NCBI RefSeq assembly: GCF_002868735.1
Contig: NZ_CP025611.1
Span: 738,501 to 802,500 of the forward strand
Length of the DNA stretch: 64,000 bases
Reading direction: 5' to 3'
Source: Niveispirillum cyanobacteriorum
Lineage (GTDB): Bacteria; Pseudomonadota; Alphaproteobacteria; Azospirillales; Azospirillaceae
A model generated the notes under the pieces. It was not told the DNA's origin and did no database searches. It was given only the letters and a program-made list of their open reading frames with translations. Shown here in pieces: positions 50,828 through 64,000 of this stretch. Within the stretch, counting starts at the first letter, position 1. The number at the start of each line of letters is the position of its first letter. The position numbers and the translations under genes were made by a program.

Positions 50828-51766
50828 GTGAATAGCAACCTCAACCTCCTGAACCAGGGCAGCGTCGCTGAAACCAAGGGAAATGCGCGTAATGCGCCGG
50901 CCCATGTGGTTCGCGCCGTACAGCAGGCCAGTGCGGCCACCGGGGTTGATTTTGCCTATCTGATGGATAAGGCCGGGGTCGAAAGCGGCTACCGCACGGA
51001 TATCAAGGCATCGACCAGTAGCGCCACCGGCCTGTTCCAGTTCACGGAAGGAACCTGGCTGAACATGGTGGAACAGCATGGGGCTAAGTACGGGTTGGGT
51101 GTTTATGCGGACAAGATCAATAATGGCTCCGTCTCCGACCCCCAGACGCGCAAGGAAATCCTGAATCTGCGCAAGGATCCGCGCCTGTCAGCCATCTTTG
51201 CCGCCGAATTGGCCAATGATAACAAGACCCATCTGGAAAATGAACTGGGCCGCCCGGTGGGCAATACGGAACTATACATGGCCCATTTCCTGGGCGCCGG
51301 CGGGGCTGCCAAGTTCCTGAAGGCCATGGACAAGAACCCCAACCAGCCGGCGGCCAATCTGCTGCCCGATGCCGCCAAGGCCAATTTGAACGTCTTCTAT
51401 GACGGCACCCGGCCCAAGTCGGTTGGTCAGATATTCGACAATTTTGCCGCCAAGTTCGATGATGCCCCGGCACAATTTGCCGGGTCCACGACGTTGGGCA
51501 CCATTCAGCCGGCGGATACTTCCTCTCAGCCCTGGCTGACGGGCATGCGCTCTGCCGTATCGGGTAAGGAACCGATCTCCACCTTCACCATCATGATGCT
51601 GGACAGCCTTGCCGTCCCGTCGGATGACGAGGAGGAGAAGAAGCGTTCCACCGGTTCTGGTGCCCGCGACAGCGATGAAGGCGATCAGAGCAGCGGCAAG
51701 GCCACCAACGGCTATGGCATGAAGGTTGGCCCGAACCTGTCTGCCGGCAGTCTGATTGCCGCGTAA
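50828..51766 (+). CDS. SLT-domain transglycosylase without signal peptide
   Basis: 312 residues from a GTG start. The SLT domain lies near the N-terminus: VVRAVQQASAATGVDFAYLMDKAGVESGYRTDIKA, with the catalytic Glu in VESGY, then SATGLFQFTEGTWLNMV and LYMAHFLGAGGAAKFL. No signal peptide or membrane segment precedes it. The C-terminal 90 residues are acidic and low-complexity (DDEEEKKRST, SDEGDQSSG). It may leave the cell through a flagellar or other non-Sec route, as with some flagellar muramidases. It is divergent from the acyl-CoA dehydrogenase. Confidence 0.85.
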   Translation: MNSNLNLLNQGSVAETKGNARNAPAHVVRAVQQASAATGVDFAYLMDKAGVESGYRTDIKASTSSATGLFQFTEGTWLNMVEQHGAKYGLGVYADKINNGSVSDPQTRKEILNLRKDPRLSAIFAAELANDNKTHLENELGRPVGNTELYMAHFLGAGGAAKFLKAMDKNPNQPAANLLPDAAKANLNVFYDGTRPKSVGQIFDNFAAKFDDAPAQFAGSTTLGTIQPADTSSQPWLTGMRSAVSGKEPISTFTIMMLDSLAVPSDDEEEKKRSTGSGARDSDEGDQSSGKATNGYGMKVGPNLSAGSLIAA

Positions 51767-51767
51767 A

Positions 51768-52052
51768 TTAGACCGCCCGGCTGCCGCCACCGAACAGAAT
51801 GCCGGAGCCGACAACGAATCCGAAATCGTACCAAAGCCCATCATTGGGGAAGGCGTACATCCGCATGTCCAGGAACAGGCTGCCGATAAAGGAAATCGGG
51901 GCCAGGAAGCCATGCACCAGACCCCAGAGCAAACCGGGCAGGGGATGGGTCACCTCCGGTGTCGGCTGGTTGGCGCAGGCCGCGACCGACAGGGCCAGCA
52001 ACAGCAACATGGCGCCACGCAGCGCCCCCTTGTGATCAAAGGATTTCAGCAT
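51768..52052 (-). CDS. Small lipoprotein, hypothetical
   Basis: 94 residues. The signal region MLLLLALSVAAC ends in a lipobox (VAAC, Cys at about residue 26). After it comes NQPTPEVTHPLPGLLWGLVHGFLAPISFIGSLFLDMRMYAFPNDG, then a C-terminal hydrophobic stretch WYDFGFVVGSGILFGGGSRAV. It is a small membrane lipoprotein of unknown function, and similar short proteins with PNDG and WYDFGF-type motifs occur in bacteria. Convergent with the transglycosylase, stops 1 bp apart. Confidence 0.7.
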   Translation of the reverse strand: MLKSFDHKGALRGAMLLLLALSVAACANQPTPEVTHPLPGLLWGLVHGFLAPISFIGSLFLDMRMYAFPNDGLWYDFGFVVGSGILFGGGSRAV

Positions 52053-52123
52053 GCGGTCGGCCCTTTTCGGCTGACTGAGAGCGGGAAGAGGATCGTATCA
52101 CCGCAAAGCCAGAAAAGCGAAAA

Positions 52124-52149
52124 CCCCGCCAGAGGTATCTCTGACGGGG
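52124..52149 (-). terminator. Terminator of the tRNA-Met gene
   Basis: Read on the minus strand, CCCCGTCAGAG and CTCTGGCGGGG form an 11-bp stem with one G-U pair and an ATAC loop, followed by TTTT (plus positions 52120-52123). It lies just downstream of the tRNA. Confidence 0.88.
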
Positions 52150-52157
52150 TGTTGAAA

Positions 52158-52232
52158 TGGTGGCACCGGCGTGATTTGAACACGCGACCAAGGGCTTATG
52201 AGTCCCCTGCTCTACCGCTGAGCTACGGTGCC
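52158..52232 (-). tRNA. tRNA-Met (anticodon CAT)
   Basis: The minus strand gives a 75-nt cloverleaf including an encoded CCA. The acceptor stem is GGCACCG paired with CGGTGCC, the D arm is AGCTCAGCGGTAGAGC, and the anticodon loop is CTCATAA with the CAT at 52200-52198. The T arm is CGTGTTCAAATCACG. The anticodon stem has one A-G mismatch next to the loop. GG at the 5' end and full acceptor pairing indicate an elongator-type tRNA, not the initiator. A tRNA-Ile modified at the CAT wobble position cannot be excluded by eye. Confidence 0.93.
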
Positions 52233-52308
52233 GAAGCTCGTCCGTCCGGGTGGTCCCGAACGGGAGCCGCTATTTATGAAACTGCGCTGGGCCTGTCAAT
52301 ATCTGTTT

Positions 52309-52515
52309 TCAAAAATCTTCATCATAAAGCAGGTGCCGTTTCAGCTGTGCCCGGTAGCGGCCCATACGCGACCCGTCATGGCCGGGCCAGCCGGCGCGCA
52401 GGGCCGACAATTCCGCCTCCCGCTCATTGACGGCCCAGCAGGACAGCTCCGTATCCCTGCCGGCCTCATTGCGCCAGCGGAAGACGAACAGCTGTGGCGT
52501 TGCGGTTGGCGGCAT
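52309..52515 (-). CDS. 68-aa hypothetical protein
   Basis: A short soluble frame upstream of the tRNA on the same strand. The sequence (PQLFVFRWRNEAGRDTELSCWAVNEREAELSALRAGWPGHD, ending HLLYDEDF) looks like a small folded domain with strands followed by a helix. The ribosome site before its ATG is weak. I do not recognise it. The overlapping plus-strand frame is less protein-like. Confidence 0.42.
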   Translation of the reverse strand: MPPTATPQLFVFRWRNEAGRDTELSCWAVNEREAELSALRAGWPGHDGSRMGRYRAQLKRHLLYDEDF

Positions 52516-52681
52516 GGGGCAGGGGACCTGTCGGCGGCTTTAAGGGACGCAGGATGCGTCGGGATGGCCTCTCTGTCCACCCTATCCAAGTTTGGTGGTC
52601 GACCTGTGCATCGACCACAAGACTTTGGGGGTGATGCCGCTGTAGGATGCGGCACCCGCCAACCCGTGCCGGTTATCCGCC

Positions 52682-54370
52682 ATGTTGCGTTTTATGCTGA
52701 CCCCGCTTCGCTGGTTTTTCCGCTTCGTACTCTATACCAGCGTAATTCTGACCCTCCTGGTGCTGCTGGCACCCTTTGCCTTTGACATTCCGGGGCGGGC
52801 GGAAAAGGTGCTGGCCACCATGAATGCCGGCAACCTGCGTGGCATGCGGGTGCAGGCGCTGCCGGAATCGGTGCGGGGATTTCCGCCGGAACTGGAAATC
52901 AGAGACCTGCGCGTGACGGTTCCAGGGCCACAGGGCGTGGCGGCCACAGCCATGACGGCGGCCAAGGTCCGCGTCGTTGTCAATGTTATGGAAAGCATGC
53001 TGCGTGGACGCGTGGTCCTGGCGGCCATGGTGGAAAATCCTGTCATCTATGCTAACCAGCCCCTAAACCTGGGCGCCATCGCAACCGCCATCAGCGTCGC
53101 TACGGGCCTGCATACCCAGATCCAGCTGGTCGGCGGTGAAGTGATCAATCCCGGCAGCCGGACGGTGGTGGCACTTGGCGATGACACGCTGACCAATATC
53201 AATTCACGCTCCAGCGAGGATCAGCAGGTGGCGGAGGTTGTCCCCCAGGATGATCGGGGGGCTGCGTCCAACCTTGGGGGCGGTGGCGGCGGTGCGGGTG
53301 GCACCACGGGGGCAACGGCTGCCGGTGCTGGTGTTGGCGCCGGTGCTGTGGCTCCGGGGGTTGTTGCTGGTGTTGCGGCCGGTGTCGGTGGCAGCGTCGT
53401 GGCGGGTACGAGCGGCGGCGGTGGTCGGGGTCCGGGAACCACCCCAGGGGGCGGCGGCACAAATCCCGGCGGTGGCGGTACTGACCCTGGTGGCGGCACG
53501 AATCCTGGCGGTGGTGGCACCAATCCCGGTGGTGGTGGCACCAATCCGGGAGGGGGCGGTACGAACCCTGGTGGTGGTGGGACCAACCCAGGCGGCGGCG
53601 GAATTGATCCCGGTGGTGGCACATTGCCTGGCGGTGGTGGGATCAACCCCGGCGGTGGCGGCACCAATCCCGGTGGTGGTGGTACGAACCCCGGCGGCGG
53701 CGGTAGCAATCCGGGCGGTGGTGGCACTGATCCCGGTGGCGGTACGAACCCTGGCGGTGGCGGCACGAACCCCGGCGGTGGTGGCTCCGATCCTGGTGGC
53801 GGCGGTACGAACCCCGGCGGTGGTGGCACCAATCCTGGCGGCGGCGGTACGAACCCCGGCGGCGGCGGCACGAACCCTGGCGGCGGCGGTACGAACCCCG
53901 GCGGTGGTGGCACCAATCCTGGCGGCGGCGGCACGAACCCCGGCGGCGGCGGCACGAACCCCGGCGGTGGTGGCACCAATCCTGGTGGCGGCGGCACCAA
54001 TCCCGGTGGTGGCGGCACCAATCCTGGCGGCGGCGGCACGAACCCCGGCGGTGGTGGCACCAATCCTGGCGGCGGCGGCACGAACCCCGGCGGTGGTGGC
54101 ACCAATCCTGGCGGCGGCGGCACGAACCCCGGCGGTGGTGGCACCAATCCTGGCGGCGGCGGCACGAACCCCGGCGGCGGTGGCACCGATCCTGGTGGCG
54201 GTGGCACCAATCCCGGTGGTGGTGGCACCAATCCTGGCGGCGGCGGCACCAACCCTGGTGGCGGTGGCACCAATCCTGGCGGGGGTGGCACAAACCCCGG
54301 CGGCGGGGGCACCAATCCTGGCGGTGGCGGTACAAACCCGCCGATGTGTACCTGCCCCTGTGGCTTTTAA
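52682..54370 (+). CDS. AsmA-like membrane-anchored N-terminus fused to glycine-rich heptapeptide repeats
   Basis: 562 residues. A membrane anchor at about 10-36 (LRWFFRFVLYTSVILTLLVLLAPF) precedes about 150 residues resembling the start of AsmA/YhdP-type bridge proteins: PPELEIRDLRVTVPG, then AKVRVVVNVMESMLRGRVVL and ENPVIYANQPL. A Gly/Ala/Val linker leads to about 43 heptads, mainly TNPGGGG. The protein ends in PPMCTCPCGF with three Cys in five residues. The core protein-like part is firm; the AsmA resemblance is inference from pattern. It is probably inner-membrane-anchored with the repeat tail in the periplasm. I know of no such fusion. Confidence 0.78.
   Translation: MLRFMLTPLRWFFRFVLYTSVILTLLVLLAPFAFDIPGRAEKVLATMNAGNLRGMRVQALPESVRGFPPELEIRDLRVTVPGPQGVAATAMTAAKVRVVVNVMESMLRGRVVLAAMVENPVIYANQPLNLGAIATAISVATGLHTQIQLVGGEVINPGSRTVVALGDDTLTNINSRSSEDQQVAEVVPQDDRGAASNLGGGGGGAGGTTGATAAGAGVGAGAVAPGVVAGVAAGVGGSVVAGTSGGGGRGPGTTPGGGGTNPGGGGTDPGGGTNPGGGGTNPGGGGTNPGGGGTNPGGGGTNPGGGGIDPGGGTLPGGGGINPGGGGTNPGGGGTNPGGGGSNPGGGGTDPGGGTNPGGGGTNPGGGGSDPGGGGTNPGGGGTNPGGGGTNPGGGGTNPGGGGTNPGGGGTNPGGGGTNPGGGGTNPGGGGTNPGGGGTNPGGGGTNPGGGGTNPGGGGTNPGGGGTNPGGGGTNPGGGGTNPGGGGTNPGGGGTNPGGGGTDPGGGGTNPGGGGTNPGGGGTNPGGGGTNPGGGGTNPGGGGTNPGGGGTNPPMCTCPCGF
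53450..54340 (+). repeat. 21-bp minisatellite with a 42-bp higher-order period
   Basis: About 43 tandem units of 21 bp, three of them shortened to 18 bp, encode the heptapeptide tail. From about 54020 to 54190 synonymous forms alternate (ACG AAC CCC with ACC AAT CCT), giving an exact 42-bp period: AAT codons at 54020, 54062, 54104 and 54146, then GAT at 54188. Each unit contains GGCGG(T/C)GG(T/C)GG, four GG runs on the plus strand, so short G-quadruplexes are possible. Because the unit has no stop, several frames on both strands are open through it. Confidence 0.95.
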
Positions 54371-54409
54371 GTGAGGGTTCCGGGTGGGGGCATCCCCACC
54401 CGGCTTCGG

Positions 54410-55762
54410 TCATGTCTGCCGCTGCCGGCTGGCGGCACGGTCCAAGAACAGGCACAGCGCCACCACGGGAATACCGATGGCGGCGGTACCGGCAAAGAAC
54501 AGGGCGTAGGCCCCCATCTGTCCGGCAATCGGCTCCAGCCCCAGCACCATCTGTCCGGAGAAGCCCTTCAGCACCTTGCCCAGCACCGTATAGAGTGAGG
54601 ACAGCAGCGCATATTGAGTGGCGGTGTAGCCCAGGCTTGTCAGGCTCGACATATAGGCGGTCAGGGCCACGCCCGCGAAGCCGGTCGCGACATTGTCAAC
54701 GATGATAGCCGCCGTAAACACGCCGATATCCGGCCCGCTGAGCGCCATGACGGAGAAGGCAAGGTTGGAAAAGGGGCCGAGGACCGCGCCAAAGATCAAG
54801 GTTCGCCGGAAGCCCAGCCTCACGGACGCAAGGCCGCCCAATGCAATGCCCGCGATGGAGGCCCAAAGCCCGACAGAGGCGCGAACGGTGCCCACCACTT
54901 CCTTGGTCAGGCCCAGATCGACATAGAACGGGTTGATCATCGGCCCGATCATGAAATCGCCCAGCCGGAAGGTCATCACCACCAGCAGCATCAGCACCGA
55001 CAAGGCACCATAGGTGCGCAAAAAGCTGAGCAGCGGCCCGACAATCGCATCAAACAGGCCCACCGGCGTCCAGAGCGGGGCCGACGCCATGCCGCCCGTC
55101 GGGGCGTGACGCATCGGCTCCGTCGCCATCAGGGTGGCGACAACGCCAACCGCCATCACGGCACCCGCAACGCCATAAGATGCCTGCCAGCCGATCCCGG
55201 CGGCCAGCAGCAGGATCAGGCTGTCGGTGGCCAGCATGGCGGCCCGATACCCGGTCTGATAGGCAGCGGACAGCAGGCCCTGTTCGGCCCCGTCTTCGGC
55301 ACTTTCAATGCGCCAGGCATCGACCACGATATCCTGCGTGGCCGAAGCAAAGGCTGCCAGCAGGGCAAAGGCACCCAGCTTCCAAAGGTTTGCCCCGTCC
55401 GGCCCCACGGCAGCCATGCCGAACAGCCCGGCCCCGATCAGCAATTGCGACAGCACTATCCAGCCGCGCCGCCGGCCCAGCCGCCCCAGGATTGGCGCAT
55501 CCAGCCGGTCTACCAGGGGCGCCCACAGCATCTTCAATGAATAGGCCAGCCCGATCCAGGACAGAAAGCCGATGGTGGCCAGATCGGCCCCGCCTTCGCG
55601 CAGCCAGAATCCCAATGTATTGCCTGTCAGCAGGAAGGGCAGGCCCGAGGAAAAGCCCAGCAGCAGCATGACCAGCACCTTGCGCTGGCCCAGCGATCGC
55701 AGCACCTGTCGCCAGCCGATGGGGGCCTTCTTCTGCTCCGGGCTTGCTGCATCGGCCGTCAT
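54410..55762 (-). CDS. ampG: AmpG-like muropeptide MFS permease
   Basis: 450 residues, about 12 membrane spans. It starts with a short cytoplasmic segment and VLRSLGQRKVLVMLLLGFSSGLPFLLTGNTLGFWLREGG, the AmpG signature. LSWIGLAYSLKMLWAPLVDR and TQDIVVDAWRIES follow; both are strongly conserved in AmpG. It would import anhydromuropeptides for cell-wall recycling. The frame is open upstream to 56071 but the ATG at 55762 is the family start. It is convergent with the repeat protein gene. Confidence 0.92.
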   Translation of the reverse strand: MTADAASPEQKKAPIGWRQVLRSLGQRKVLVMLLLGFSSGLPFLLTGNTLGFWLREGGADLATIGFLSWIGLAYSLKMLWAPLVDRLDAPILGRLGRRRGWIVLSQLLIGAGLFGMAAVGPDGANLWKLGAFALLAAFASATQDIVVDAWRIESAEDGAEQGLLSAAYQTGYRAAMLATDSLILLLAAGIGWQASYGVAGAVMAVGVVATLMATEPMRHAPTGGMASAPLWTPVGLFDAIVGPLLSFLRTYGALSVLMLLVVMTFRLGDFMIGPMINPFYVDLGLTKEVVGTVRASVGLWASIAGIALGGLASVRLGFRRTLIFGAVLGPFSNLAFSVMALSGPDIGVFTAAIIVDNVATGFAGVALTAYMSSLTSLGYTATQYALLSSLYTVLGKVLKGFSGQMVLGLEPIAGQMGAYALFFAGTAAIGIPVVALCLFLDRAASRQRQT

Positions 55763-56006
55763 GGGCGGGTCCTGTCCTGTCTGCGGGTAATCTGTTTGTG
55801 AGTATAGGCAAGGGCTTGCCGGCCTGCGCGGCCTATTTGCGCACGAACATTGCGCAGAATGCAGGTCGTTTGGACTGGAAAATACCAACGCGAGTCGCTT
55901 ACAAAGTTCGACCCACCGGTGAAATCCGATGCTGGGTAACCCATATGCACATCCCGCCGCCGGGAAGAGGCCGGTGCGGCGATGGCTGTAGAAGGAAGAG
56001 CAGGAC

Positions 56007-61232: not shown

Positions 61233-62489
61233 TTATTGCGCCGCCATCGCTGCGGCCCGGTGTCCCGACTGTACCGCCCCCTCGATGGTGGCGGGAAGAC
61301 CGGTATCGGTCCAGTCGCCGGCCAGCAGCAGATTGGCCGACAGTTGCGGCCCCGGACGGCGGCGCTGCTGATCCGGCGTGGCGGCAAACGTGGCGCGCTT
61401 TTCCTTGACGATCCGGCCCGATGCCGGGCGGTCGGGATCAAGCCCCGTCGCCGCCGCCACATCCCGCCAGATCAGGCGAAGCAGATCGTCAGCATCGCGG
61501 TCCATAAGGGCATCCGCCGCGCTGATGGTCACCGACAGCACGTCGCCGCGCAGGAACAGCCATTCCGCCACCCCGCCGACCAGACCGATCAGGGGCAGGC
61601 CACCGGGCAGCGTAACCGGGCTTTGCAGCCGGTAATGGGCATTCAGGATGGCGTGATACCGGTCAGGCACCGACAAATCGGGCAGAAGGCGTGCGGCGAC
61701 CTCCGGCGGTACGGCCAGGACCACCTTGTCATGGGCCGCCAGAACAATCCGTTCCGACCCGAAATCCAGGGCAGATACAAGGCCATCCGCTGTCCGCTCC
61801 AGTGCTTTCAGACGAGCCCCAAACCGTGCTGCCGCACCAGATCGGGCGAGATAGGCCAGCGCCGGATCGACCAGGGCGCCTGATAACCCGGCCGGCCCCG
61901 CGATCCAGGGGCGGCAGGCCTCTGCCCCGCGCAGCAGGGTGCGGCGGAACACGGACCAGAGCAGGCGGGCAGACCCTGTGTCGTACGGTGTGTTCAGAAT
62001 GCTGACGGCAAGCGGCTTCCACAGCCGCTCCGTCAACGGCGTCCCCGCTGGCAGTACATCCGCTACCGGCGCATCCGGGCTGACAAAGGCCAGTTTGAAC
62101 GCAGCCAGATAGTCCAGCAGCCTACTGTCAGGCACCCGCCGGGCAGGATTGGTAAGCCAAAGGGGAAGCGGGCCGTTGCCGGGGCGCAGGGTCCAGGACC
62201 GCCTATCCCGCAGGTCCAGAAAGGGCAGGGCGACCGGATCAACCGTAATCAAGCCCGCCCGCCCCCCAATCCGGTCCAGATAGGCGAAGCATTCGGGATT
62301 GGCGCCCAGGATCAGGTGATTGCCATTATCGATCACCCTATCCAGCAAACCGTCATGCCAGGACCGGCAGCGGCCACCGGCATGATCGGTTGCTTCGTAA
62401 AGGATGACGTCGCGACCAGAACCGGCCAGTGCCGTGGCACAGGCCAGCCCCGCCAGCCCGGCCCCGACCACATGGACCGTGCCGGTCAC
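61233..62489 (-). CDS. hpnE: Hydroxysqualene dehydroxylase
   Basis: 418 residues from a GTG that overlaps the stop of the preceding gene (GTGA). The FAD/NAD site TVHVVGAGLAGLACATALAGSGRDV and EATDHAGGRCRSW are at the N-terminus. DRVIDNGNHLILGANPEC and the C-terminal LLLAGDWTDTGLPATIEGAVQSGHRAA are characteristic of HpnE. The enzyme reduces hydroxysqualene to squalene, the last step of the HpnC-HpnD-HpnE route that feeds hopanoid synthesis. Direct overlap with hpnD supports one operon. Confidence 0.93.
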   Translation of the reverse strand: MTGTVHVVGAGLAGLACATALAGSGRDVILYEATDHAGGRCRSWHDGLLDRVIDNGNHLILGANPECFAYLDRIGGRAGLITVDPVALPFLDLRDRRSWTLRPGNGPLPLWLTNPARRVPDSRLLDYLAAFKLAFVSPDAPVADVLPAGTPLTERLWKPLAVSILNTPYDTGSARLLWSVFRRTLLRGAEACRPWIAGPAGLSGALVDPALAYLARSGAAARFGARLKALERTADGLVSALDFGSERIVLAAHDKVVLAVPPEVAARLLPDLSVPDRYHAILNAHYRLQSPVTLPGGLPLIGLVGGVAEWLFLRGDVLSVTISAADALMDRDADDLLRLIWRDVAAATGLDPDRPASGRIVKEKRATFAATPDQQRRRPGPQLSANLLLAGDWTDTGLPATIEGAVQSGHRAAAMAAQ

Positions 62490-64000
62490 AGGCGGGGGGC
62501 GCGGCCCAGGGCGCAGGACAGCGCCACGCTGATCTTTTCCCACTTGCCCAGGCGCGGGCGGCGGGACAGGGCGTCAGGTGACCAGCCCCGCTGACGCAGG
62601 CGCAACAGAATGCGGTGATACAGCACCATCATGGCGGCGGCCGGCCACAGCTTGCGATGCGGCTGCTTCAACAGGCCGTTGGCCTGATGGAAAGCGGCTT
62701 CCGCACGGGCGGCCAGCGCCTCGCAGACCTGCGGCAATGCCGGGTCAGTTAGCAGGGAGACGGGATCGGACTGCACGGCATAAATGTCGATGCCCGCATC
62801 CTCCAGCATCTCCTCCGGCAGGTAGCAGCGGCCATCGCGCGCATCCTCCTCCACATCCCGCAGGATGTTGGTGAGCTGCAACGCCTCGCCCAGCGCCAGA
62901 GCAAAGGCATCGGCGCTTGCATCGCCCTTGCCAAAGACGCGCACGGACAACAGGCCCACAGCCCCCGCCACGCGCCGGCAATATTGCGCCAGCATGCCAA
63001 GCGAGGGGGCGCGGATGGGCCCATCCACATCCATCATCATGCCGTCAATCACGGCCTGGAATTCGGCCTGGGGCAGGTTATAGCGCCGCACGGCAGAAGC
63101 CAGATCGCGCAGCCGGCCATGATGGCGGCCCGGGCTGGGCATGCCATACATGGCGTCGATGCGCCGCTGCCAGTCGGTCAGGGCGCCGCGCTTGACCTCG
63201 TTATTCTCCTTGCCGTCGGCAATGTCGTCCACGGCGCGGCAGAAGCCATAGATGGCGAACATCGCCCGGCGCTTGCGCTGCCCCAGCAGCCGCAGCGGCC
63301 AGTAGAAGGTGGAGGTGCCGCAACTGCCGGCCTTGGCCAGCCCGCTTTCGGGTGACAGGCGCGGCGGGCGGCGCGACATGCCGCGCAACACACCCAGCAG
63401 CACCGCGCCCAGCCGGCTGAACGCCGACAATTGCACCTTGCCGGCCAGCGGGTCACGCCGACGCAACTGCTTCGACAGGGCCACCGCCATCTCGATAATG
63501 ACCGCCGATTCCATGCGCAGGCCCGGATTGGCGATCAGGCGGGGCAGGGCACCGGCCCGGCGTAGCAGCGAATCGACATTGTCGAGCGTCCGGTCGATCA
63601 CGGCACGAACGGGGGGCGTCGCCTCCGTCTCGACCAGATGTTCGACCGATCCACCGGCCTCCTTGAACCAGGCGGTGGGCAGGTAGCAGCGGCCTAACTC
63701 CACCCAGTCATGCCGGCAATCCTGGATATGGTTCAGGATCTGCAGCGCGGTGCACAGTGCGTCCGAGGCGGGGGCGGCATTGATCCCCTCCCCATGCAGT
63801 TCCAGCAGGAAGCGGCCCACGGGGTTCGCGGAATAACGGCAGTAAAGGACAAGGTCCTGCCATGTCTTGCAATGGCTGCCCGTGGCATCACGGCGGAAGG
63901 CTTGCAACAACTGCCGGGCATGCAGGCCCGATACGCCAGTGGCCGTCTGCGTTGCCTTCAGCGTCAGGGCAGGGGCCAGCCACGGCTGGTTGCCGATGCC
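62486..64000 (-). CDS. hpnD: Fused HpnC-HpnD squalene/presqualene synthase (partial, runs off the window)
   Basis: One uninterrupted frame of at least 504 residues continues past position 64000. The first part is HpnC (hydroxysqualene synthase): LVLYCRYSANPVGRFLLELHGE, ALQILNHIQDCRHDWVELGR and CYLP. From about 63380 downward comes HpnD (presqualene diphosphate synthase): GTSTFYWPLRLL, MFAIYGFCRAVDDIADG with its DDxxD motif, and LTNILRDVEEDARDGRCYLP. These are normally two separate genes. The first Asp-rich motif of HpnC is beyond the window. The join at SRRPPRLSPESGLAKAG has no stop. Confidence 0.88.
   Translation of the reverse strand, partial: GIGNQPWLAPALTLKATQTATGVSGLHARQLLQAFRRDATGSHCKTWQDLVLYCRYSANPVGRFLLELHGEGINAAPASDALCTALQILNHIQDCRHDWVELGRCYLPTAWFKEAGGSVEHLVETEATPPVRAVIDRTLDNVDSLLRRAGALPRLIANPGLRMESAVIIEMAVALSKQLRRRDPLAGKVQLSAFSRLGAVLLGVLRGMSRRPPRLSPESGLAKAGSCGTSTFYWPLRLLGQRKRRAMFAIYGFCRAVDDIADGKENNEVKRGALTDWQRRIDAMYGMPSPGRHHGRLRDLASAVRRYNLPQAEFQAVIDGMMMDVDGPIRAPSLGMLAQYCRRVAGAVGLLSVRVFGKGDASADAFALALGEALQLTNILRDVEEDARDGRCYLPEEMLEDAGIDIYAVQSDPVSLLTDPALPQVCEALAARAEAAFHQANGLLKQPHRKLWPAAAMMVLYHRILLRLRQRGWSPDALSRRPRLGKWEKISVALSCALGRAPRL

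What the first reader, a model, noticed from the sequence alone, without database searches (positions are those of the whole stretch)
52682..54370. AsmA-like bridge-protein N-terminus fused to glycine repeats and a CTCPCGF tail
A membrane anchor and about 150 AsmA/YhdP-like residues are followed by about 43 TNPGGGG-type heptads and a terminal Cys-rich motif. AsmA-like proteins form lipid-transfer bridges across the periplasm; here the bridge body appears replaced by a flexible, extensible, possibly wall-penetrating tail with a reactive or metal-binding tip. I know of no described protein with this design.
Basis: partly seen in the sequence, partly recalled or inferred. Interest (0 to 1): 0.75.

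Follow-up and report, generated by a model that had tools for sequence, protein, structure and literature searches.

The report
Membrane protein with cysteine-tipped glycine arm
A bacterial membrane protein carries a small domain related to lipid-transfer proteins, then a long glycine-rich arm of variable length that ends in a conserved three-cysteine tip; the design looks real and selected, but its job is not yet known.

Summary
In detail: ORF 52682-54370 (+), 562 aa, has a TM helix, about 135 conserved residues, a linker, 43 contiguous Pro-Gly units (34 exactly TNPGGGG) and a terminal MCTCPCGF. The N-domain is related to the AsmA/YhdP N-terminal (Chorein-N) cap: outside its own family the profile hit three proteins in 385 genomes at E <= 0.001, all AsmA N-termini, and profile comparison beat 200 of 200 shuffles. 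With the TM removed the signal is weak. No AsmA groove follows. Homologues occur in 15 of 82 family genomes (3 of 13 genera), beside a convergent ampG-like gene in 11 of 11 loci examined. The arm varies (167-416 residues in five complete proteins; three lack the heptad array). The C-x-C-P-C tip is present in 8 of 8 genomes whose 3' end is held, holds the only cysteines in 5 of 5 complete proteins, and differs mostly synonymously. Seven homologues in one genus lack arm and tip, so the cap is the constant part. Most likely it is an inner-membrane cap presenting a periplasmic soft-metal or thiol tip on a flexible tether; function and topology are inferred. A new variant of the AsmA/Chorein-N kind.

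The parts
52682..54370 (+). whole ORF, 562 aa
   Evidence: M1 invariant in a 10-row alignment
52682..52786 (+). residues 1-35: Arg-containing start and single TM helix; N-in/C-out is inferred from the positive-inside rule
   Evidence: sequence; helix 2-49 in the model, pLDDT 75-86 over residues 1-30
52787..53191 (+). residues 36-170: AsmA/YhdP N-terminal (Chorein-N-like) cap
   Evidence: strands and helices at low confidence
53192..53437 (+). residues 171-252: poorly conserved linker, rich in Gly, Ala and Val in its second part
   Evidence: sequence
53438..54331 (+). residues 253-550: 43 contiguous xxPGGG(G) units, presumed flexible arm
   Evidence: flexibility is inference
54332..54370 (+). 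residues 551-562 and stop: TNPPMCTCPCGF tip, three cysteines
54410..55918 (-). convergent AmpG-family MFS gene, the constant neighbour (39 nt between the stops)
   Evidence: TIGR00901 E 6e-131; synteny

Best explanation
This is an inner-membrane protein made of a TM anchor and a stand-alone AsmA-type (Chorein-N) cap, with a disordered Gly/Pro arm reaching into the periplasm and a C-x-C-P-C thiol tip at its end. The arm is a flexible spacer: length and composition may drift as long as it stays soluble and unstructured. The work is done at the two ends. The cap sits on the periplasmic face of the inner membrane, where AsmA caps sit; the tip binds a soft metal such as Cu(I) or Zn(II), or forms a disulfide with a partner further out in the periplasm or at the outer membrane, so that the two are tethered. 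Shown here: the architecture, the AsmA kinship of the cap, selection on cap and tip, variability of the arm. Inferred: topology, disorder, tethering, and the metal or disulfide chemistry of the tip. There is no groove, so it is not itself a lipid bridge.
For: Cap: profile A1 found 3 proteins outside the family in 385 genomes at E <= 0.001 (at most 9 candidates scored per genome), each a Pfam AsmA protein (E 7e-28, 1.8e-35, 5.3e-39) matched near its N-terminus. hhalign against 13 AsmA N-termini picked by Pfam alone: score 44.9, E 2.3e-6, probability 89; with the TM kept and the rest shuffled, mean 22.4, max 33.3 of 200. 8 of 10 members match Pfam YhdP at E <= 1, best 0.0015. The four best PDB matches of the model are the Atg2 N-domain, none significant; Levine 2019 (PMC6791001, passages read) assigns AsmA/TamB N-termini to Chorein-N. 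Tip: present in 8 of 8 genomes whose 3' end is held (G000, G001, G003, G004, G006, G008, G010, G012); only Cys in 5 of 5 complete proteins; 26 synonymous against 4 non-synonymous codon differences over all pairs of 5 tips, pairs not independent. Arm: 167-416 residues between residue 170 and the tip, 28-51% Gly after residue 170. CFC/CYC in the G004 and G012 tips resembles Cox11's CFCF copper site, as described in PMC9172173 (passages read).
Against: With the TM cut off hhalign gives only 5% probability (E 0.0075), though its score of 22.4 beats the best of 200 shuffles (19.4); the tail-less rows alone scored 13.7, within the range of those shuffles (which were made on all rows). The window's own fragment in A1 had no YhdP match at E <= 1 and its longer form only E 0.03. 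The model has pLDDT 56 and no PDB match is significant; unrelated N-myristoyltransferases follow Atg2 in the list. Seven tail-less homologues show that the cap can persist without arm or tip. In G012 the tip codons overlap ampG's 3' end by 25 nt, so conservation there is not independent. For G003, G006 and G010 the tip lies on another contig than the N-domain, and G003's N-domain was not found. The only gene found beside it in every locus compared was the ampG-like one; nothing nearby was shown to concern metals or thiols, and the other neighbours of distant relatives were not annotated. G002, G007 and G009 of the same genus lack the gene at this locus, so it is dispensable there.
Confidence: 0.4

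Rival explanations
1. Disulfide tether: the odd number of cysteines in the tip makes an inter-molecular disulfide, either in a homodimer or to a periplasmic or outer-membrane protein, so the protein is a covalent tether with no metal involved.
For: Three Cys only, all terminal, none in cap or arm, in 5 of 5 complete proteins; long low-complexity arm; periplasmic side inferred from the TM.
Against: No partner identified; C-x-C spacing also suits a metal; tail-less homologues exist.
Confidence: 0.25
2. Soft-metal tip: C-x-C-P-C binds Cu(I) or Zn(II), and the arm lets it pick up or hand over metal through the periplasm.
For: C-[TSFY]-C-P-C pattern with M, V or L before it; resemblance of CFC/CYC to the Cox11 CFCF copper site, which also follows a single TM with the N-terminus inside (passages of PMC9172173).
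Against: No copper or zinc gene was seen among the window's neighbours used, but neighbours were not searched systematically; a three-Cys linear motif is too short to assign a metal.
Confidence: 0.3
3. Peptidoglycan-linked protein: the arm threads the cell wall and the function is coupled to muropeptide recycling through the neighbouring ampG-like gene.
For: An ampG-like gene is convergent with it and next to it in 11 of 11 loci examined at that end, in three genera; an SLT-like gene lies upstream in the closest relatives.
Against: Convergent genes are not co-transcribed and can stay together by descent; an ampG-like gene persists beside DAHP synthase in genomes without this gene; SLT was not found within the fetched loci of G001, G004, G012 or g2; the g2 neighbours are only about 33% identical to the window's AmpG and were not scanned against families.
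Confidence: 0.15
4. The arm is neutral repeat expansion on a cap protein, and the tip is a relic or by-product of the 3' overlap with ampG.
For: The array differs by one heptad between strains with identical N-domains; three complete tails of five have no T[ND]PGGGG unit; in G012 and in g2 the 3' end overlaps ampG.
Against: In the six other loci measured the tip does not overlap ampG beyond at most the stop codon (gaps 39, 39, 10, -4, and 38 and 37 in G003 and G010), yet it is kept, with 26:4 synonymous to non-synonymous differences over pairs of five tips.
Confidence: 0.15

Closest known systems
AsmA-like proteins (AsmA, YhdP, TamB, YdbH; clan CL0401 as cited in PMC8593681)
   Same: Single N-terminal TM anchor followed by a Chorein-N-type cap; profile kinship tested.
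   Different: No beta-taco/AsmA region; below every Pfam cut-off; the body is a Gly-rich arm or, in g2, nothing.
Chorein-N domain of Atg2/Vps13
   Same: Best Foldseek matches of the model, not significant; fold expected from Levine 2019 (passages).
   Different: Those are the entry caps of long bridges; here the cap stands alone.
TonB/TolA-type periplasm-spanning arms (recalled, not tested)
   Same: Inner-membrane anchor, extended arm, functional C-terminal end.
   Different: The end is a 7-8 residue Cys motif, not a folded domain; the arm is Gly-rich.
Cox11/CtaG copper chaperone
   Same: Single N-terminal TM and a C-x-C motif, with an aromatic middle residue in two relatives (G004, G012).
   Different: No Cox11/CtaG match in Pfam or NCBIfam; motif at the extreme C-terminus of a low-complexity arm; no homology claimed.

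Membership tests
AsmA-like family | single N-terminal inner-membrane TM helix | tested here: met
   sequence; helix in the model; topology itself not measured
AsmA-like family | Chorein-N-like cap after the TM | tested here: met
   weak when the TM is excluded; structure of low confidence, fold match not significant
AsmA-like family | long AsmA/beta-taco region (ca. 425-1,125 aa in E. coli proteins, PMC8593681) | tested here: not met
   residues 171-562 are linker, Gly array and tip; g2 homologues end at 189-199 aa
AsmA-like family | Pfam AsmA/YhdP score over the curated cut-off | tested here: not met
   YhdP 12.6 bits against 46; no AsmA match at E <= 10
AsmA-like family | lipid transfer activity | not testable with these tools
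   needs biochemistry or genetics
Cox11/CtaG | CFCF motif in an Ig-like domain | tested here: not met
   only C-[TSFY]-C-P-C at the extreme C-terminus; no CtaG match
Sortase-type C-terminal sorting signals (recalled) | motif followed by a C-terminal TM helix and basic residues | tested here: not met
   the protein ends 2-3 residues after the last Cys

The most novel reading that the evidence does not exclude
A new class of envelope protein: a stand-alone Chorein-N cap on the inner membrane that holds, on a disordered arm of freely varying length, a C-x-C-P-C thiol or copper tip able to reach across the periplasm; a cap on a tether in which only the two ends are under constraint.
Probability: 0.3. 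Interest if true: 0.75.

Novelty: new variant of a known kind. Interest (0 to 1): 0.55.

Why it matters
AsmA-like caps are known as the entry of lipid bridges. A family in which the cap stands alone (about 190 aa in one genus) or carries a low-complexity arm with a conserved cysteine tip separates the cap from the bridge. It offers a small natural system for asking what the cap does by itself, and possibly a new way to reach across the periplasm. The fixed tip on a drifting spacer makes predictions that a few point mutants would test.

Tried and rejected
Pfam, NCBIfam and PDB sequence searches with the protein or with A1 gave nothing over a cut-off; PDB sequence hits such as UBE2S, antibody chains and MreB (best E 0.09) were rejected as chance. 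A first hhalign run (E 3.4e-9) included three AsmA proteins found by the query itself (L077-L079) and one wrongly chosen frame (L106); these 4 of 17 rows were dropped and only one search is relied on. The per-position diversity of units selected by the pattern PGGGG is circular for codon positions 1 and 2 and is not used; the contiguous-array count replaces it. dN/dS at larger distances (0.14, 0.38, 0.40, 0.66 for L019, L020, L021, L026) has dS of 0.94-1.30 and is not used. The shared ending GR[DG]P of the g2 homologues overlaps ampG's 3' end by 29-31 nt in the 4 loci measured, so it is not counted as evidence. An overlap artefact for the Cys tip was tested and rejected for the loci measured except G012. 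A tip shared by other proteins: a pattern search of 82 family genomes gave 15 matches, 6 of them this gene; in the other 9 the first Cys lies 14 or more residues before the end of its frame. That pattern by its letters misses the tips of G003 and G004, so it is not exhaustive; the pattern covers only TAA and TGA stops and so misses G001. The DAHP-synthase tree of 15 rows (midpoint root) does not make tail bearers one clade: G012 falls away from g1, so tail and tip are old with losses, or were transferred; undecided. No plasmid match. Promoter scan: none found, but 0.4 expected, so uninformative. Literature, open-licence PMC only: no paper holding Niveispirillum with AmpG or with glycine-rich; none for CTCPCGF or CXCPC; none for 'AsmA family protein' with 'glycine-rich repeat', for chorein with cysteine-rich, C-terminal tail and periplasm, or for periplasm-spanning with glycine-rich, inner membrane and cysteine; 10 of 498 papers listed, none on this subject; 15 of 45 listed, none of the 15 holding 'glycine-rich'.

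Full report
Observation. It has a TM helix at about residues 11-33, a conserved region to about residue 170, a poorly conserved linker, a contiguous array at residues 253-550 of 43 xxPGGG(G) units (34 TNPGGGG, 3 hexads; 40 xxPGGGG), and the ending TNPPMCTCPCGF. Tandem Repeats Finder reports one 21-nt array of 42.2 copies. No sigma-70-like promoter was found in 51700-54600 (0.4 expected by chance), and no ribosome-binding site is obvious to the eye.

It is a real, selected gene. Residues 1-170 differ from the copy in alphaproteobacterium AAP38 by 30 synonymous and 0 non-synonymous changes, and from a Niveispirillum MAG (L017) by 31 and 0; against N. lacus dN/dS is about 0.11 with dS 1.06. In the contiguous array 43 Pro and 169 Gly residues are kept although four Gly and four Pro codons are used. 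The AAP38 copy has one heptad more before the IDPGGG landmark, so the array length is labile while the frame holds; array lengths rest on public assemblies, several of which break there.

Relatives. A protein search of 59 genomes, the window's own included, gave 12 with a match; a 10-row alignment A1 was made (two hits with N-domains identical to the window's, L004 and L005, left out). In the bacterial family, 15 of 82 genomes and 3 of 13 genera match: 7 of 11 in the window's genus g1, 7 of 7 in g2, 1 of 1 in g3 (the order search, covered the same 82 genomes). G003 adds an eighth g1 genome by its tip, on a contig that starts inside the array; its N-domain was not found. In G002 and G009 other genes follow ampG and no match exists at E <= 10; the same holds for G007. 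The G003 case shows that such a negative is not proof in a fragmented assembly. Named relatives are Niveispirillum lacus, two Niveispirillum MAGs and AAP38. No plasmid record matches.

Tails. Among five complete tail-bearing proteins, those of the window and G008 (N. lacus) have the heptads. Those of G001, G004 and G012 have unlike Gly/Pro/Ser-rich tails with 0 T[ND]PGGGG units (G001 has 5 looser xxPGGGG). The residues between 170 and the tip number 385, 416, 231, 291 and 167 (window, G008, G001, G004, G012). The tips read MCTCPCGF in the window, G008 and G001, VCFCPCRGG in G004 and LCYCPCTLP in G012; G003 has MCSCPCGF, and G010 and G006 have MCTCPCGF. So the tip is present in 8 of 8 genomes where the end is held; in G003, G006 and G010 it lies on a different contig from the N-domain. 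G005's contig ends in the array and is not counted. The five complete proteins hold no other Cys. Over all pairs of five 7-residue tips there are 26 synonymous and 4 non-synonymous codon differences, pairs not being independent. A pattern search of 82 genomes (15 matches, 6 this gene) showed no other protein ending this way, but its letters miss the G003 and G004 tips, so it is not exhaustive.

Tail-less homologues. All 7 in g2 are 189-199 aa, with no Cys and no tail. Their 3' ends overlap the ampG-like gene by 29-31 nt in the 4 loci measured. A DAHP-synthase tree of 15 rows puts G012 (tail) with other genera rather than with g1, so tail bearers are not one clade. Whether the arm was added to a stand-alone cap, lost in g2, or transferred is open.

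AsmA kinship. The class-wide profile search of 385 genomes (at most 9 candidates scored per genome) found 2 g1 members and 3 others at E 1.0e-4 to 8.4e-4. All three are AsmA proteins (Pfam AsmA E 7e-28, 1.8e-35, 5.3e-39), each matched near the start of its frame. Profile comparison with 13 AsmA N-termini chosen by Pfam alone gives score 44.9, E 2.3e-6, probability 89; shuffling the columns after the TM gives mean 22.4, sd 1.8, max 33.3 in 200 trials. With the TM removed the score is 22.4 against mean 12.0, sd 2.1, max 19.4, but hhalign's own probability is then only 5%. The tail-bearing rows alone score 20.1 and the tail-less rows alone 13.7, the latter within the range of the all-row shuffles. 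Pfam YhdP matches 8 of 10 members at E <= 1 (best 0.0015). The window's own fragment is not among the matches shown there; its longer form matches YhdP positions 8-110 at E 0.03. The AlphaFold2 model from 3 sequences has mean pLDDT 56 and pTM 0.39. Its four best PDB matches are the Atg2 N-domain (E 0.069-0.58, none significant), followed by N-myristoyltransferases; LPD-3 is rank 9 and Vps13's N-domain rank 39. That fits Levine's assignment of AsmA/TamB N-termini to Chorein-N (PMC6791001, passages read) and the domain scheme of PMC8593681 (passages read). I take the cap as related to AsmA, with moderate to good confidence, and the groove as absent.

Neighbours. An ampG-like gene is convergent with and next to this gene in 11 of 11 loci examined at that end: window, G008, G001, G004, G012, G003, G010 and four g2; G003 and G010 are placed by the tip alone, and G006's tip was not examined for this. 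Stops are 39, 39, 10, -4 and -25 nt apart in the first five, 38 and 37 in G003 and G010, and -29 to -31 in g2. The window's neighbour is an AmpG-family MFS protein (TIGR00901, E 6e-131); the g2 neighbours are about 33% identical to it and were not scanned against families. A functional link is possible; simple descent of a convergent pair explains the order as well. The other neighbours of the distant relatives were compared only with the window's genes, not annotated.

Mechanism. The pattern is two constrained ends and one free middle. The cap would sit at the inner membrane surface as in AsmA proteins. The arm, 167-416 residues, has a contour of roughly 60-145 nm and, as a random coil, a root-mean-square reach of about 7-12 nm (estimate from recalled polymer parameters, not a tool result), enough for the tip to sample much of the periplasm. 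The tip has three alternating cysteines with Pro between the second and third and M, V or L before the first. This suits a soft metal or a disulfide; the CFC/CYC forms resemble Cox11's CFCF, described as its copper ligand in PMC9172173 (passages read). Topology, disorder, metal and disulfide chemistry are all untested.

Verdict. I file it as a new variant of the AsmA/Chorein-N kind, not as a member of the AsmA bridge proteins, because the groove and the Pfam cut-offs were tested and not met.

Noticed in passing
window 50828-51766 (+): Lytic-transglycosylase-like gene (weak SLT Pfam match, E 0.011, below cut-off), conserved at 92-99% identity beside this locus in close relatives.
   Followed up: partly
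window 52158-52232 (-): tRNA-Met gene in the gap upstream of the ORF; the mechanical ORF over it (51756-52430) is not evidence of a protein.
   Followed up: no
L026 11013-11037 and loci L025, L027-L029: Antisense 3' overlap of this gene with the ampG-like gene by 25-31 nt, which confounds conservation of the C-terminus there.
   Followed up: yes
L067 4856-5176 and 5291-5758 (-): Where the gene is missing in G007, two similar small ORFs follow ampG that look like Nif11-type leader peptides (recalled, not scanned).
   Followed up: no
window 61233-63910 (-): Two ORFs resembling the hopanoid squalene-synthesis genes hpnE and hpnD (names recalled, not scanned).
   Followed up: no
window 53221-54315 (-): A 364-aa antisense PPPPGFV-repeat ORF, a mechanical mirror of the Gly array.
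   Followed up: no
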